Shown piece after piece: positions 44,246 to 50,895 of a stretch of 64,000 nucleotides of DNA. The notes beneath the pieces were generated by a model. The model saw only the letters and a program-made list of their open reading frames with translations, did no database searches and was not told the DNA's origin. The DNA is from Candidatus Dietzia intestinigallinarum (GTDB lineage Bacteria; Actinomycetota; Actinomycetes; Mycobacteriales; Mycobacteriaceae), in contig DWWG01000242.1 in NCBI GenBank assembly GCA_019119875.1, positions 117,878 through 181,877 of the forward strand, written 5' to 3'. The translations under genes and the position numbers were made by a program. The first letter of the stretch is position 1, and every line of letters begins with the position of its first letter.

Positions 44246-44681
<436 letters not shown>

Positions 44682-44777
44682 AAACTCCCTGAACCCCCTC
44701 CGAACTGCACGTCTATACAGGTCGGAGTAACGGGCAGAGTGGATAGATTCGTCAAGTTCTGACGGCTCGGGGGCCCG

Positions 44778-44796
44778 TGCGGGACCAGTGCGGGAC
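44778..44796 (+). repeat. Paired arm-type-like motifs TGCGGGACcagTGCGGGAC (11-bp phase)
   Basis: Matches CGCGGGACtgcTGCGGGAC at 50811-50829 near the other end. Confidence 0.5.
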
Positions 44797-45076
44797 AGGC
44801 CCGCCTAACACTGCGACACCCTCGAGAATGAACCAGGGCCTTCGAGGGCCGGGAGCGCGGCACCGTCATGCGTTGGACCCCGACATTCAGCTAGAAGTGA
44901 AATCGTCTGGTTAGCTCCGATCGTTGTCGTACGCCCGGTGATATAAGTGAGTTCACATCAATATGGAGGCTCTAATATGACTGCTAACGGACCTTGGGCC
45001 CCGGCCAGCAACAGCCGCACCCAAGAAATGCTCAGCCTGGCCAGCCCTAGGAGTAGCGTAAAAAGAAGAGCGGCAC

Positions 45077-45190
45077 ATGAAGTTGATCCTGATCGCCGTA
45101 GGGGTGCTCGTTGTCCTGTTCGTGATCGCCGGTATCGCAGGCAACGGTGGTGACGACGAAGTTGCGGCCGCGGGAGATGCGGTTGAGTGA
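45077..45190 (+). CDS. 37-aa membrane peptide, possibly remnant of a DUF4352-like exported protein
   Basis: MKLILIAVGVLVVLFVIAGIAGNGGDDEVAAAGDAVE; below ORF-track cutoff. Confidence 0.45.
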   Translation: MKLILIAVGVLVVLFVIAGIAGNGGDDEVAAAGDAVE

Positions 45191-45326
45191 ACACTGCCAC
45201 CTCCCACTCGCCGGCGTAGTCAACCTAGATTCGCGCAGGGTGCTGACTACGTTTATTGCGGATGGTTGCGCCAGACTGCGTGCGACTGCTGGCCCAAGCA
45301 ATTCGTGATCGAGGAGAGTTCAGGCC

Positions 45327-45917
45327 GTGAACGCACCCCGCACCCTTCGTGAGCTACTCGAGGAGGCCTCCGGTCACGGAGAGCTCTCCACGCGGCGGCT
45401 TGAGATGAAGGTGGACGCTACGAGGGAGAAGGGCCGCCTCAGTTCGAAGCTGAACAGGGCGACGATCGCGCAGATTGTCAACGGCAGTAACCGCAAGCGC
45501 CCGACGGACGACACGATCCGCGCCATCGCCTTCCTCGCCGGTGTCGACGACGAGGTCGCGTTTACAACAGCAGGACGACGCGCCCCGGGCCGGCCCTTCG
45601 CCGAAGACCTGCCCGACGGCGTCGACGACCTGACGCCCAAGGAACGCGAGGCCGCCGTGTACATGCTGCGCGTCCTGGTCCAACAACGACGGGGCCTCAA
45701 CCACCATGAAGACCAGGGCACGCAGGACCCGCCGAGCGATCCGCCGGCTGATGGAGAAGCTCGGACTGGCGGAACCCGCATGAACCCGCCTGAATGGAAC
45801 GGGAAGTCCGCAGACGAGATGTCGGACGAGGACTTCCAGGAGGCCGCTGGCACCGACGAAGTGTGGGCTGCCTACGTGCGGACCAGACGACCCGAGCTCG
45901 CAGACTGGGACTACTAG
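45327..45917 (+). CDS. HTH (XRE-like) DNA-binding protein, first gene of putative cassette
   Basis: N-terminal LNRATIAQIVNGSNRKRPTDDTIRAIAFLAGVDDEVAF; acidic C-terminus. Confidence 0.62.
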   Translation: MNAPRTLRELLEEASGHGELSTRRLEMKVDATREKGRLSSKLNRATIAQIVNGSNRKRPTDDTIRAIAFLAGVDDEVAFTTAGRRAPGRPFAEDLPDGVDDLTPKEREAAVYMLRVLVQQRRGLNHHEDQGTQDPPSDPPADGEARTGGTRMNPPEWNGKSADEMSDEDFQEAAGTDEVWAAYVRTRRPELADWDY

Positions 45918-45925
45918 GAGACGCT

Positions 45926-46495
45926 TTGCCCCTGCCTGATCTCGTGGGTGACCCCCTCGCCCTGCCACCCCGTGCAGACCCGTACTCCAGCACGTTCGCG
46001 GAAATAGCGAAGATCTTCGTCGATCGGGCACCGGCAGACCATCGCGAGTTTCGTGCACGACGCCTAGATGCGCTCGAGGCTCACGCCCGGGTCGTGGCGG
46101 GAGTGTGGGGCGACCACGTAGTGCGCGTCTGGATCAACGGCGGTTTCCTGACGCACAAGACCTGGGCGAAACCCAAAGACATCGACGCGGTCTACTTCGT
46201 ACCTCCGGACCACCTGGGGCGTGCCCACCACGGCAGGGTCGCTTCGCTTTGGACCTTGTCGGAGGTGAGTGCAACGATCGGACGGTCCGCCTCCGAGGGC
46301 GGAGGCCCCGGCGGGCATAAACTGAAGGTCGACGTGTTGAGCCCGCTCGCCGGCCTCGTCGACGCCTACGTAGCAGCAGACACCGCGATCGAGCGGCGAA
46401 TGTGGAAGCGCCAGTGGTCGACGGTAAATGGACCGGACAACAAGCCGCTGGCCGGCGTCGAGAAGGGATTCGTGGAGGTGCTCCTCAATGCCTGA
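45926..46495 (+). CDS. Nucleotidyltransferase-like protein (DUF6932-like)
   Basis: VVRVWINGGFLTHKTWAKPKDIDAVYFV (GG...DxD); TTG start with AGGAG at 45916. Confidence 0.55.
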   Translation: MPLPDLVGDPLALPPRADPYSSTFAEIAKIFVDRAPADHREFRARRLDALEAHARVVAGVWGDHVVRVWINGGFLTHKTWAKPKDIDAVYFVPPDHLGRAHHGRVASLWTLSEVSATIGRSASEGGGPGGHKLKVDVLSPLAGLVDAYVAADTAIERRMWKRQWSTVNGPDNKPLAGVEKGFVEVLLNA

Positions 46496-47492
46496 ACATG
46501 ACTACTCTGACGCCGAGCTCGATGCCATGTCCGACGCGGAGCTGCTCAAACTCGCAATCGCCGACGCCCGGACTCGCCCCACGTACGAGTTTGAGCTGAG
46601 CCAGATCTGGGGCGGCACAGTGCGCGGGTGCCCCGAGTTGGAGGAGATCTTCGTCTCGGAGACCGCACCTTCCAACGTGCGAGCGTCATTCCATCTGACC
46701 GGTGAAGGTGTCCACGGGCACAGCACTGACGCCGCCATGCTCGCAGAAGTGATTGGGGGCTTGGCGGAGTCCTCTCGCGCGCAGGCGGAGCACATGGCCA
46801 AGCGGCGCCGTCAATCTCGGCAGAAGGCCGGGGAGGTCCCAAAGGACTACGTGGCTCGTCCTCTCTTGGCCACCGGGCTGGGCGAGGGGTCTGTGACCTT
46901 TGCGCTCGAGACGACCGCAGACGACAGGCATCCCGGCGATGAGGGACTCAGCCTCTCGCCGGATTCCGACAGCCTCGACGACCAAGCGTTTCGCGCGGTG
47001 CTTGAGGTCGTAGCGTCTGACGGGCACAGTGACCGTCTGGAGGCGCTGAACGACGCGGCCCGTCGTGCGCTCCTGCCCGCAACTGACGCACTCGGCAGAG
47101 CCGACGTGGACATCGACATCACTGTCATCCAGCGAAGTCGACGTACTCAGCGGCTCCAGGTGACAACGCCGCGCGTGCGGATGCTCACCGAGGTCCTCAA
47201 GCAGCCGAGCACCGTCGAGGAGTCGGTCAAGTTCATCGCCGAGATCGACGGGTTCAAAGCTTCCGAGAGCAAGGTTTTCCTGCGCGAGGACGGAAACTCC
47301 CGGGCCTGGCACGTCAGCGAAGGCGTAATGCGTAGGGTCCGGCAACTCGCAGATCAGGAAGCTGCGCTATTCGAGTGCTCGGGCAACGTCGAGACGACGA
47401 CCACGCCTGGCAAGAAGTCTGAGACCAATAGAACGCTTTCGTCCATCGACCCGGTCAAGGGGCGACCCGAGCAACAAATGCTCAGTGAGTAG
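46488..47492 (+). CDS. Protein of unknown function, overlaps the nucleotidyltransferase-like gene
   Basis: ATG at 46488 overlaps upstream TGA; 334 aa (MPEHDYSDAELDAMSDAELLKLAIADART...); no family recognised. Confidence 0.6.
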   Translation: MPEHDYSDAELDAMSDAELLKLAIADARTRPTYEFELSQIWGGTVRGCPELEEIFVSETAPSNVRASFHLTGEGVHGHSTDAAMLAEVIGGLAESSRAQAEHMAKRRRQSRQKAGEVPKDYVARPLLATGLGEGSVTFALETTADDRHPGDEGLSLSPDSDSLDDQAFRAVLEVVASDGHSDRLEALNDAARRALLPATDALGRADVDIDITVIQRSRRTQRLQVTTPRVRMLTEVLKQPSTVEESVKFIAEIDGFKASESKVFLREDGNSRAWHVSEGVMRRVRQLADQEAALFECSGNVETTTTPGKKSETNRTLSSIDPVKGRPEQQMLSE

Positions 47493-47567
47493 CAGGATGA
47501 GAAGGGTGCTGATCGCCCCGGCGCCGCAGGCGTCCGCTTCGACAGATGCTGGGCACGGTTCAGCTGG

Positions 47568-48059
47568 ATGGCGAGGTCTTTGTTGAGCGACCCACTTGCT
47601 GACCGTGTGTTCGGCCCAAACTGCTGCTGGTATTGGCATGACGACTGCTTGGCTGAGTTGGGGTCGCTCGCCAGCATTGATGACTGGGGGCACGGCCGGT
47701 TGATGTCGATGATCGCTCGGTCAGAGTCGGGCAAGGGGCTCGTACTGGAAGGGGAGCGCGAAACGATCCACGCGCCACTTCCGCGAGCTCCGCGGGGGGT
47801 CACGAAGCCGCCGTGGGTCGGAGAGCTAAGACTGCGGGGGGATCAAGTGTATCGCAAACGCGCCTATCCGTACTGGGAGCACCGGGTCTTTTACGGTGTG
47901 CCGACCAATGACCCATGGGCGATCGTCGGGCTAGGTGCTTGGTCGAAGAGGAGCGACGACTTGAAGGCCTACGGGAAGCAGGAGGACCAGATCCGACGTG
48001 CCATGCACCGTCTCAAGTGGTTTTTTGGTCAGCAGGGCTACACGTGGAACGATCTGTGA
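47568..48059 (+). CDS. Putative RelE/HigB-superfamily-like toxin of a TAC operon
   Basis: ELRLRGDQVYRKRAYPYWEHRVFYGVP...IVGLGAWSKRSDD...KQEDQIRRAMHRLKWF; immediately upstream of antitoxin-like HTH. Confidence 0.5.
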   Translation: MARSLLSDPLADRVFGPNCCWYWHDDCLAELGSLASIDDWGHGRLMSMIARSESGKGLVLEGERETIHAPLPRAPRGVTKPPWVGELRLRGDQVYRKRAYPYWEHRVFYGVPTNDPWAIVGLGAWSKRSDDLKAYGKQEDQIRRAMHRLKWFFGQQGYTWNDL

Positions 48060-48108
48060 CACAGTTGCGTTATATGCAACAGTGGGAACCGGCTAGCTGC
48101 CGAGGAAG

Positions 48109-48507
48109 GTGATTGCAGTGCCACTACCGCACATGAGTGACGAACAACGACACACCGTCGAGCTGGCAGACGCGGAGCGTTCCCTCATTGAGGGGCTGGT
48201 CAGCCTGCGACGGGAGAGCGGAGTGACAGCGAGCGACGTCGCACGCATGATTAATCGTGACAAGTCCACGGTCTCACGCTTCGAAGCGTTGGACGGCGAC
48301 CCCCGGCTTTCCACAGTCTTCCGGTACGCCCGGGCCGTCGGTGCAGCTGTCTCGATCTCTGTGGCGCGCCGTGAAACCCCGCGCGAGCTTCACCGTGACT
48401 ACGTTGGCGTGTGGACTGGGGAGGGCATGTCGACGCAAGCGGCCAAACCCACCAAAATGTGCTCTGAGCAGAAGCCGATTTCGTTTCGGCTCTCGATCCC
48501 ACACTGA
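48109..48507 (+). CDS. HTH antitoxin (HigA-like) with possible C-terminal chaperone-addiction tail
   Basis: LVSLRRESGVTASDVARMINRDKSTVSRFEALDGDPRLSTVFRYARAVGAAVSISV plus extra ~45 aa tail. Confidence 0.72.
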   Translation: MIAVPLPHMSDEQRHTVELADAERSLIEGLVSLRRESGVTASDVARMINRDKSTVSRFEALDGDPRLSTVFRYARAVGAAVSISVARRETPRELHRDYVGVWTGEGMSTQAAKPTKMCSEQKPISFRLSIPH

Positions 48508-49004
48508 TGACGGACAAGGATCGGCAAGTCGCGCCCGCCGATGCTGGCGAACTTGCGGCGGGCATCACCGACGCAGTCACACAGTGGTTCCGTCGGGATG
48601 CTTCCACCACAGAGGCCCAGATAAACGACCTAGGATCCGGGTCTCGAAACGAGCCCACGGTCGAGTTGACGCCCAGTTGCCTGGGACAAGAGCGCGTTAT
48701 CGTCGCCCGCGTCCGCATCGCCATCGAGCATCCTGAGATTTCATTGGACTACGCCTTGGGTGCTCAGTTTCAACACGGGTATTCCGGGCCCCTACCTGAT
48801 GCGATTCTCGCTGAGTTCATGCGCGCCACCGCGGCGCCCATGCTCATCGGGATGATCCGCGGCGCCATCGCGACCGAATCTGCAATCTTTGGGGTCACCA
48901 AGATTCTCCTGCCGTACTTCATCGAAGCGCAGATTCGTACGCTCCCTGATGAGGCTTTCATCTCTGCTGCGTCTAACGCCGATGAGTCTGGTCGTACCGA
49001 CTGA
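48507..49004 (+). CDS. SecB-like chaperone (Rv1957-like) of a TAC operon
   Basis: VIVARVRIAIEHPEISLDYALGAQFQHGYSGPLPDAILAEFMRATAAPMLIGMIRGAIATESAIFGVTKILLPYFIEAQIR; ATG overlaps antitoxin TGA. Confidence 0.6.
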   Translation: MTDKDRQVAPADAGELAAGITDAVTQWFRRDASTTEAQINDLGSGSRNEPTVELTPSCLGQERVIVARVRIAIEHPEISLDYALGAQFQHGYSGPLPDAILAEFMRATAAPMLIGMIRGAIATESAIFGVTKILLPYFIEAQIRTLPDEAFISAASNADESGRTD

Positions 49005-49643
49005 ACGGCATCTGCCGCCCCTATTTGCCACTTTAGGAGACCGCCGGGACCGTACAGCGCCGAGAACGGTCCGGGAAGGTCCGCTGGATTGCCCCCTACC
49101 GGGATGCCAGCGGGCGTGAACACTCCAAGACCTTCGACCGCGAGAAAGACGCCAAGGACTGGGTGGGCGACCGGGAGAAAGAAGTCCGTGACGGTACGTG
49201 GGTGCCGCCGGACATCGCTGCAATGACGATCGCGCAGTGGTGTGAAATCTGGTACTCGGGACGCACGGGCATTGCGCCGGCCACGCTCGAGCAGTATCGC
49301 ACGATCATCGATACCGACATTATCCCGGAACTCGGGTCGATCCCTGTGCGGACGCTCAAGACCTCCCGCTGTCGGAAGTGGGTCCGCGACCTCACAGAGA
49401 CGCGGTCGTGGAGAGAGCCGATCGTAGAGAACATAGACGGCAAGAAGGTGGCGAGGCCCGACGTGCTCGCCGAGTCCACCGCCTCGACCCGCGCGCACGT
49501 GTTCGCGTCCATCCTCAAGGAAGCTGTTCAGGCGAGGGTGATCGTGCGCAAACCGATGGTCGGGATCCGGCCGCCGAAGCGCGCGGTCGAGTTGTCCACG
49601 GCCGTCGACCCTGTGGCCTTGCCGACTGGCGCGGAGCTGTGGG

Positions 49644-50252
49644 TGTATGGGACGTGTTTTCGGTAGCGATGTTCTGATGATCTGGTAGCGCGCGTACGAG
49701 CATCCGGTAGCGGGCCGCGGGGATTCGCTCGGCTCGCGCGCATTCGACCGGTGCCCGCCGTTCCAAGGCGGACGTACGGGCTGCGCGAGACACTGGGTCC
49801 GGGTTGGTGTCCGCTAGTAACCGAACGGGCAGGTGCACCGCTCTGAGTGAGTCACATGCCATCTCCGTGGGGTTCGAGGACGTGCTGCTCGTCCTCTGCG
49901 ACCTGGACGGCCACCCGGAGATTGGGGAGCGCCCTAAAGGCCCAGTTCATAACTGGTTGCCACTGGCGTAGCGAGCAGCGCATTTGGGGAGGTCAGGTTC
50001 GCGTATCCTCCGCCAACTGGGCGGGGGGCTTGGTCCATTGCTCAGCGTCAGTATTCGAAGAAGCGACACCGGCTCGGCGTGCCCGACGCGATCAAATCTA
50101 CATCCGCGCTTTCACCGCCCCTGCCCAGGCGAGCAGGGGGCGAACGGGGCGCCAGGCAAGTGCCACCTGATGCCATCGAGGCGCGCTATCCGATAGCCGT
50201 CCAAACGCTATCCGGTCGTCAGAACCGCGCTATCCGAAGCACGTCCCAAACA
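49644..50252. mobile_element. Non-autonomous (MITE-like) element with iteron-bearing terminal inverted repeats
   Basis: Ends TGTATGGGACGTG...CACGTCCCAAACA; three GGTAGCG (49662, 49684, 49706) vs three CGCTATCC (50184, 50206, 50228), all 22-bp phased; no convincing ORF. Confidence 0.78.
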
Positions 50253-50810
50253 CTGGCTCTGCGGGACGCGGCGCCTGATCTGATCGCGGAGGCGATCATC
50301 GTCGCTGCTGGGATCGGGTCGCGCCAGGGCGAGCTGCTGGGGCTGCGGCGGCGCAGCGTCGACTTCCTGCGCAAGGACATTGTCGTCGTCGAACAGGCCG
50401 TAACTCTGTCCCGCGGCGGGGCGGAGTTCCGGCCACCGAACACCCGGCAGGCGCTGCGACGCATCCCGGTCGGAGACGTGGTGATCGACGCGATCGCACG
50501 CCACCTCGAGAAGTACCCCTGCGAGCCGGACGAGGCGATCTTCCGCAAGCGGATGGGCCGGCTACACCGCCGGTCTGCGTTCGGGGTCTTGTGGCGCAAG
50601 GCCCGGCAGGAGGCCGGCGCCCGGGACACCCTGCGCTGGCACGAGCTGCGTCACTTCTACGCCTCCACGCTGATCGCCGGCGGAGCCTCGGTGCGAGAGG
50701 TCATGGAGCGGATGGGACACACGAGCGCCAAGGAAACCATCGCCAGGTACTCCCGCCTGTGGCCGGACCGGACCGAGTCCACGCGGGCCCTGGTTGACTC
50801 CGCACTCTCC

Positions 50811-50829
50811 CGCGGGACTGCTGCGGGAC
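50811..50829 (+). repeat. Paired arm-type-like motifs CGCGGGACtgcTGCGGGAC (11-bp phase) inside integrase 3' end
   Basis: Same motif and phase as 44778-44796. Confidence 0.5.
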
Positions 50830-50871
50830 CACAGCCGCTCACAGGCCGCTGACCTGCACCTGCTACCTGTC

Positions 50872-50895
50872 TCCGGCTTACAGGCCGGCTCGTTC
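50872..50895 (+). repeat. Right att-site direct repeat (displaced rnpB 3' end)
   Basis: TCCGGCTTACAGGCCGGCTCGTTC identical to 44656-44679. Confidence 0.88.

What the first reader, a model, noticed from the sequence alone, without database searches (positions are those of the whole stretch)
44656..50895. Integrative element using the 3' end of the RNase P RNA gene as attachment site
Seen: the last part of rnpB (TCCGGCTTACAGGCCGGCTCGTTC, 44656-44679) recurs identically at 50872-50895, right after a tyrosine integrase C-terminus. The enclosed ~6.2 kb holds only accessory-type genes, while both sides are conserved core genes. Known: tyrosine integrases favour 3' ends of structured RNA genes (tRNA, ssrA) because the att copy restores the gene; rnpB is a less usual target. 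The left copy preserves a full 15-bp P1 helix (GCGAAC.../...GTTCGC); the right copy diverges just after GTTC. Inference: left is the functional rnpB end carried in by the element and right is the displaced original.
Basis: partly seen in the sequence, partly recalled or inferred. Interest (0 to 1): 0.85.

Follow-up and report, generated by a model that had tools for sequence, protein, structure and literature searches.

The report
Mobile island inserted in RNase P gene
A 6.2-kb foreign DNA island sits at the tail end of the bacterial gene for the RNase P RNA enzyme and replaces that tail with an identical copy; similar insertions by different phages and mobile elements turned up in many related bacteria, so this essential RNA gene appears to be an overlooked, repeatedly used docking site for mobile DNA.

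Summary
Confirmed. The 24-nt end of rnpB (44656-44679) recurs exactly at 50872-50895, 20 bp after a tyrosine-integrase gene. The closest relative held (G006, rnpB 98% identical) has the empty site: rnpB runs straight into the sequence that follows the right copy (91% over 3.2 kb). The 6.2 kb between is essentially absent from 22 genus-mates and lower in GC. It is a site-specific integrative element with rnpB as attB; left is the restored gene end, right the displaced native end.

(1) The element is a fossil: its integrase is split by a 0.6-kb deleted IS21-family insertion and lacks a start codon at the expected place. (2) rnpB is a recurrent target: of 124 Actinomycetes genomes matching an rnpB-end 20-mer, 14 others carry a second, rnpB-less copy, 12 with a tyrosine integrase within 1.5 kb, in three orientations. 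Examples include a TrwC-relaxase element and a 38.8-kb provirus. In 10 of 18 copy pairs identity starts within 1 nt of the CCGGC-TTACAG-GCCGG dyad, the presumed crossover core. I found no paper naming rnpB as an attachment site.

The parts
44251..44680 (+). rnpB, class A RNase P RNA gene (attB-bearing gene, restored)
   Evidence: Rfam RF00010 full model 1-367, 259.9 bits
44246..44260 (+). 5' strand of helix P1 of RNase P RNA, partner of the element-borne 3' strand
   Evidence: 15 pairs with 44667-44681 read in the sequence
44656..44679 (+). attL: left copy of the 24-nt rnpB end
   Evidence: exact repeat
44657..44672 (+). presumed integrase core site, dyad CCGGC-TTACAG-GCCGG
   Evidence: in 10 of 18 copy pairs in different genomes the identity starts 0-1 nt from CCGGC; that it is the crossover site is inference
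44997..45190 (+). decayed remnant resembling the Ltp-type lipoprotein gene that follows rnpB in G004
   Evidence: short DNA match to L061 just upstream of the gene; L061 gene hits PF07553 Lipoprotein_Ltp; the remnant itself has no Pfam hit, so this is inference from position and sequence
45327..45917 (+). 196-aa ORF, no family (regulator-like, unproven)
45926..46495 (+). DUF6932 protein (nucleotidyltransferase-like; PADLOC candidate PDC-M63A)
   Evidence: PF22014 E 2.6e-12; PDLC04744 E 7.6e-6
46488..47492 (+). 334-aa partner gene of the DUF6932 gene, unknown family
   Evidence: homologues beside DUF6932 homologues on Rhodococcus and Mycobacterium plasmids
47568..48059 (+). 163-aa ORF, unknown family
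48109..48507 (+). 132-aa XRE-type helix-turn-helix protein (antitoxin-like)
   Evidence: PF13560 and PF01381 above cut-off
48507..49004 (+). 165-aa ORF, unknown family
   Evidence: no Pfam, NCBIfam, PDB or phage match; model too poor to use
49046..49642 (+). integrase gene, N-terminal part, no start codon in frame at the expected place
   Evidence: PF14659 Phage_int_SAM_3 E 1.6e-9; first in-frame start is 49163
49643..50253 (.). internally deleted IS21-family insertion that splits the integrase (edges approximate by a few bases)
   Evidence: 77-nt imperfect inverted ends; same ends bound 2.66-kb IstA/IstB-type elements in relatives
50254..50852 (+). integrase gene, catalytic C-terminal part
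   Evidence: PF00589 E 4e-17
50872..50895 (+). attR: right copy of the rnpB end, the displaced native end
   Evidence: exact repeat; downstream contiguous with the empty site of G006

Best explanation
The stretch 44680-50871 is a small integrative element that entered the chromosome by tyrosine-integrase recombination between its attP and the 3' end of rnpB. The exchange probably takes place in the dyad CCGGC-TTACAG-GCCGG. The attP carries the rest of the rnpB end, including the 3' strand of helix P1, so the essential ribozyme is restored on insertion and the native end is displaced 6.2 kb downstream. Shown here: exact repeat, empty sites, integrase next to attR, island absent from relatives, P1 intact. 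Inferred: the crossover point, former mobility, order of events. Later an IS21-family derivative split the integrase, so the element is probably immobile unless helped in trans. The same rnpB end is used by other phages and mobilizable elements of Actinomycetes with several kinds of integrase.
For: Repeat beyond chance. Empty site in G006 contiguous across the junction over kilobases, and in G015. Only the window's genome of 23 in the genus has two copies, and only it has the island. GC drop. Phage_integrase domain 20 bp before attR. Independent cases: 14 other genomes with a second rnpB-less copy, 12 of them with an integrase within 1.5 kb, against 3 of 48 single-copy loci; provirus bounded by the rnpB end on both sides; TrwC-relaxase element.
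Against: No excision or integration was observed. The integrase is broken now, so its specificity for rnpB rests on position. Its nearest relatives in the tree, integrases of Rhodococcus phages Sleepyhead and ReT1v-1 (about 41% identity), show no rnpB-like site nearby. The G006 genome is only 64% complete, though the contig is contiguous across the site.
Confidence: 0.93

Rival explanations
1. The second copy of the rnpB end arose by local duplication or homologous recombination, and the accessory genes came in independently; no integrase acted at rnpB.
For: Copies of the rnpB end without an integrase nearby exist in G516 (1.2 kb apart) and G781 (four copies).
Against: In the window the copies sit exactly at the island's ends, with an integrase at the right end and an empty site in relatives. 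Identity is limited to 24 nt, too short and too precise for homologous recombination, and 10 of 18 pairs in different genomes share one left edge.
Confidence: 0.04
2. Ordinary vertical gene content that relatives have lost; the repeat is accidental.
For: G006 is an incomplete genome, so absence elsewhere in it is not proof.
Against: Shuffles give no second 24-mer; 22 genus-mates lack the island; the junction in G006 and G015 is seamless.
Confidence: 0.01
3. Transposon insertion: the IS21-family element, not the integrase, brought the island in.
For: An IS21-family derivative is present at 49643-50253.
Against: Its inverted ends lie inside the integrase gene, not at the island's ends; the island's ends are direct repeats of an RNA gene end.
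Confidence: 0.01
4. Assembly artefact joining two contigs at the rnpB end.
For: G000 is a 242-contig assembly.
Against: The site lies inside a 182-kb contig with core genes on both sides, and the same architecture occurs within single contigs of other genomes, such as G442 (5.5 Mb) and G071 (0.7 Mb).
Confidence: 0.01

Closest known systems
Genomic islands, prophages and mobilizable elements in tRNA and tmRNA genes (Islander/TIGER type; PMC4383910, PMC12424338)
   Same: Tyrosine integrase next to one end; the 3' end of a structured RNA gene as attB; the element carries a replacement end; a displaced fragment marks the other border.
   Different: The target is the RNase P RNA gene. The TIGER/Islander resource sorts sites as tRNA/tmRNA, coding or intergenic, so an rnpB site would presumably not be named.
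Other rnpB-borne elements found here (IMGVR_UViG_2867425335_000001; G442 14.6-kb element; G071 9.3-kb element)
   Same: rnpB end at both borders and a tyrosine integrase reading towards the right copy.
   Different: Larger (38.8-kb provirus; TrwC relaxase and P-type ATPase in G442), integrase reading frames uninterrupted, other integrase lineages.
Integrases of Rhodococcus phages Sleepyhead and ReT1v-1
   Same: Nearest integrases to the window's in the phage collection and in the tree (about 41% identity).
   Different: No rnpB-like site near their integrase genes; they belong to full phages.
IS21 family
   Same: The insert splitting the integrase has the ends of a 2.66-kb element coding for IstA/IstB-like proteins.
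   Different: 0.6 kb only, no transposase genes, so non-autonomous.

Membership tests
Site-specific integrative element in the 3' end of an RNA gene | Direct repeat of the RNA gene end at both borders | tested here: met
   24/24 nt
Site-specific integrative element in the 3' end of an RNA gene | Empty site in close relatives with exact rejoining | tested here: met
   G006 and G015
Site-specific integrative element in the 3' end of an RNA gene | Integrase gene next to an att site | tested here: met
   PF00589 part ends 20 bp before attR, but the gene is interrupted
Site-specific integrative element in the 3' end of an RNA gene | Target RNA gene restored | tested here: met
   full-length RNase P model match; P1 intact
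Site-specific integrative element in the 3' end of an RNA gene | Able to excise | not testable with these tools
   no reads or experiment; a split integrase makes it unlikely without help in trans
Prophage | Virion genes (capsid, portal, terminase) | tested here: not met
   none among the island's ORFs
Integrative mobilizable or conjugative element | Relaxase or conjugation genes | tested here: not met
   none in the window's island; present in the G442 rnpB element, TrwC E 9e-82
IS21 family (insert 49643-50253) | Terminal inverted repeats shared with IstA/IstB-coding elements | tested here: met
   (IstA/IstB identity read from the translated ORFs, no profile search made)
IS21 family (insert 49643-50253) | istA and istB genes | tested here: not met
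   611 bp without such genes: deleted derivative

The most novel reading that the evidence does not exclude
rnpB is a general, so far undescribed integration hotspot of Actinomycetes: several separate tyrosine-integrase lineages in phages, mobilizable elements and perhaps integrase-less islands recombine in the same conserved rnpB dyad, and each carries a replacement 3' strand of the essential P1 helix, so conservation of the ribozyme sets their host range.
Probability: 0.75. Interest if true: 0.72.

Novelty: new variant of a known kind. Interest (0 to 1): 0.62.

Why it matters
Attachment sites in tRNA and tmRNA genes are textbook; here a further essential structured RNA, RNase P RNA, appears to serve the same purpose repeatedly. 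If so, island finders that look only in tRNA and tmRNA genes miss a class of elements, rnpB 3' ends are a simple bait for new integrases whose target gene is nearly universal in bacteria, and evolution of the rnpB 3' end (helix P1) is partly driven by mobile DNA.

Tried and rejected
A genome-collection scan for close relatives of the integrase found only one remote hit; none in IMG/VR. Phages Sleepyhead, ReT1v-1 and TripleJ were checked for an rnpB-like site near their integrases: none convincing. G522 and G168 were dropped from the list of duplicates because both their copies sit in rnpB sequence, possibly mixed bins. Comparison of downstream flanks with single-copy relatives gave no clean second empty site outside the window's genus; in G071 both copies are followed by versions of the same DUF433 module, so that locus holds repeated or nested insertions. 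A structure model of the 165-aa cargo protein was too poor to use; the second model was not collected. The idea that this protein is SecB-like came from reading the sequence and stayed unsupported. Literature: searches on rnpB or RNase P with integrase, attB, attL, genomic island and integration site found no report (passages read). Two key papers on integration sites are not in the library, so absence of earlier reports is not proven.

Full report
OBSERVATION. The repeat is real: TCCGGCTTACAGGCCGGCTCGTTC lies at 44656-44679 and 50872-50895 without mismatch, no third place comes within three mismatches, and shuffles give none. rnpB is a full-length class A RNase P RNA, 44251-44680. The left copy forms helix P1 with 44246-44260. 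The right copy would lose the outermost pairs, but those are not needed, because the empty-site genes of G006 and G015 also end ...GTTCA.

EMPTY SITE. Of 23 genomes of the genus, 21 contain the rnpB-end 20-mer and only the window's own genome has it twice. G006, whose rnpB is 98% identical, runs from rnpB straight into the sequence that follows the right copy in the window: 92% over the first 1.13 kb and 91% over 3.16 kb. G015 shows the same junction with a more diverged flank. The bases just beyond the repeat (GTTC-AC) agree between the right copy and G006, so the right copy is the native end and the left copy is followed by the element's sequence.

THE ISLAND. Its GC is about 0.60-0.66 against 0.68-0.74 in the flanks. 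A DNA search of 44690-49040 in the 22 genus-mates found only scattered matches, the best being 83 bp in G009 and G015, a few kb from unrelated integrases there. In order it holds a decayed Ltp-lipoprotein-like gene next to attL, a 196-aa ORF, a DUF6932 gene plus a 334-aa gene (a pair also found side by side on Rhodococcus and Mycobacterium plasmids; the DUF6932 protein hits the PADLOC candidate PDC-M63A), a 163-aa ORF of unknown family, an XRE-type HTH gene, a 165-aa ORF of unknown family, and the integrase. No virion or relaxase genes were found, so how it moved between cells is unknown.

THE INTEGRASE IS BROKEN. Its SAM-like N-terminal domain (49046-49642) and catalytic domain (50254-50852) are separated by 0.6 kb with 77-nt imperfect inverted ends. 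The same ends bound elements of about 2.66 kb that code for IstA/IstB-like proteins in G005, and 13 genus-mates have matches to the insert, so it is best read as an internally deleted IS21-family element. In addition no start codon stands at the expected place after AGGAGA (49035-49040); the triplet is GGG and the first in-frame start is 49163 (that a start codon was lost is inference). The element is most likely a fossil.

RECURRENCE. I scanned 399 genomes of the order and 395 of the class for CCGGCTTACAGNNCGNCTCG; the reversed control pattern gave none. By my count from the two tables 124 different genomes match, and 17 of them (the window's included) have two or more copies. Two (G168, G522) were set aside because both copies are inside rnpB sequence. 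Of the remaining 14 besides the window, 12 have a tyrosine integrase or a remnant of one within 1.5 kb of a copy (G071, G095, G440, G442, G463, G496, G512, G523, G554, G583, G588, G653), against 3 of 48 single-copy loci, and those 3 look like elements as well. Most are drafts in which the two copies lie on different contigs; G071 and G442 hold both in one contig. Rfam finds a full RNase P RNA at the left copy and none at the right copy in the loci tested. G442 carries a 14.6-kb element with TrwC relaxase, P-type ATPase, HTH (excisionase-like), integrase and TA-type genes, followed by a 1.2-kb remnant of a similar element and a third, imperfect copy. G781 has four copies in 9.4 kb with ordinary-looking genes between them and no integrase found. 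In IMG/VR a 38,759-bp provirus begins and ends with the rnpB end and has an integrase next to one of them; a 5.6-kb phage contig has an integrase plus the rnpB end but no rnpB; and a 45-kb viral contig has the rnpB end outside rnpB.

MECHANISM. In 10 of 18 left/right pairs the sequences begin to agree 0 or 1 nt from CCGGC and then run on; in the others agreement starts 2-8 nt earlier. Exact runs to the right are 23-49 nt except in G071 and the third G442 copy, which have internal mismatches. This fixed left edge coincides with CCGGC-TTACAG-GCCGG, a dyad with the inverted arms and short spacer expected of a tyrosine recombinase core (knowledge of the family; the crossover itself is inferred; perfect 5+6+5 dyads are not rare as such, 139 of 63,984 positions in the window). 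An element that recombines there must supply everything downstream, that is the 3' strand of P1: in the in-gene copies 177 of 180 P1 positions pair. Integrases come in three arrangements: reading towards the right copy (window, G071, G442, G583, G095, provirus); starting at the right copy and reading away (G440, G463, G588, G523, L065); or reading towards rnpB from the left end (G512, G168, G496, remnants in G554, G522; in G653 a remnant lies beyond the second copy). A tree needs four changes of the rnpB label, two of them forced by well-supported branches; sampling is too thin to count origins.

NOVELTY. Use of tRNA and tmRNA 3' ends is well known. In the open-access library I found no paper that reports rnpB as an attachment site, and the TIGER/Islander resource sorts sites as tRNA/tmRNA, coding or intergenic. 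Subscription papers could not be searched. I therefore rate this a new variant of a known kind: ordinary machinery, unusual and apparently recurrent target.

Noticed in passing
L073 (G781:C7:8000-24000): Four copies of the rnpB end in 9.4 kb with ordinary-looking genes between them (aminotransferase-like, DinB-like and others) and no integrase found: tandem islands that may depend on an integrase in trans.
   Followed up: partly
L072 (G442:C1:5059500-5079000): 14.6-kb rnpB element with TrwC relaxase, P-type ATPase, integrase and TA-type genes, followed by a 1.2-kb remnant that repeats the toxin-like gene of its left end, then a third copy: tandem accretion at rnpB.
   Followed up: partly
L071 (G071:C1:57500-73000): 9.3-kb rnpB element with a flavoprotein of the mercuric-reductase/lipoamide-dehydrogenase type, TraI-like helicase pieces and integrase; the same DUF433 module follows both copies.
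   Followed up: partly
window 49643-50253; L111, L112: Family of IS21-type elements and deleted derivatives in the genus; in G017 a related sequence with the same ends holds a transposase-like gene of another type.
   Followed up: partly
L061:4425-5081 (G004): An intact Ltp lipoprotein gene (PF07553) sits between rnpB and the core flank without a second copy of the rnpB end; the window has a decayed counterpart just inside attL, so G004 may hold an older element remnant.
   Followed up: partly
window 45926-47492: DUF6932 gene plus 334-aa partner form a two-gene module also found on Rhodococcus and Mycobacterium plasmids; DUF6932 matches a PADLOC candidate defence family (PDC-M63A).
   Followed up: partly
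window 45702-45784: An 83-bp patch is 93% and 88% identical to places 2-3 kb from other integrases in G009 and G015: shared by otherwise different elements of the genus.
   Followed up: no
L074 (G516:C230): rnpB end duplicated only 1.16 kb downstream, without an integrase.
   Followed up: no
L140:732-752 (IMGVR_UViG_3300048912_000097): 45-kb viral contig with an rnpB end outside rnpB; its integrase was not looked for.
   Followed up: no
L075 and L076 (G554:C1, about 6.252 and 6.862 Mb): A second rnpB end lies 610 kb away in inverted orientation with 47 identical nt, and an integrase remnant lies beside rnpB: perhaps an old element whose ends were separated by an inversion.
   Followed up: no
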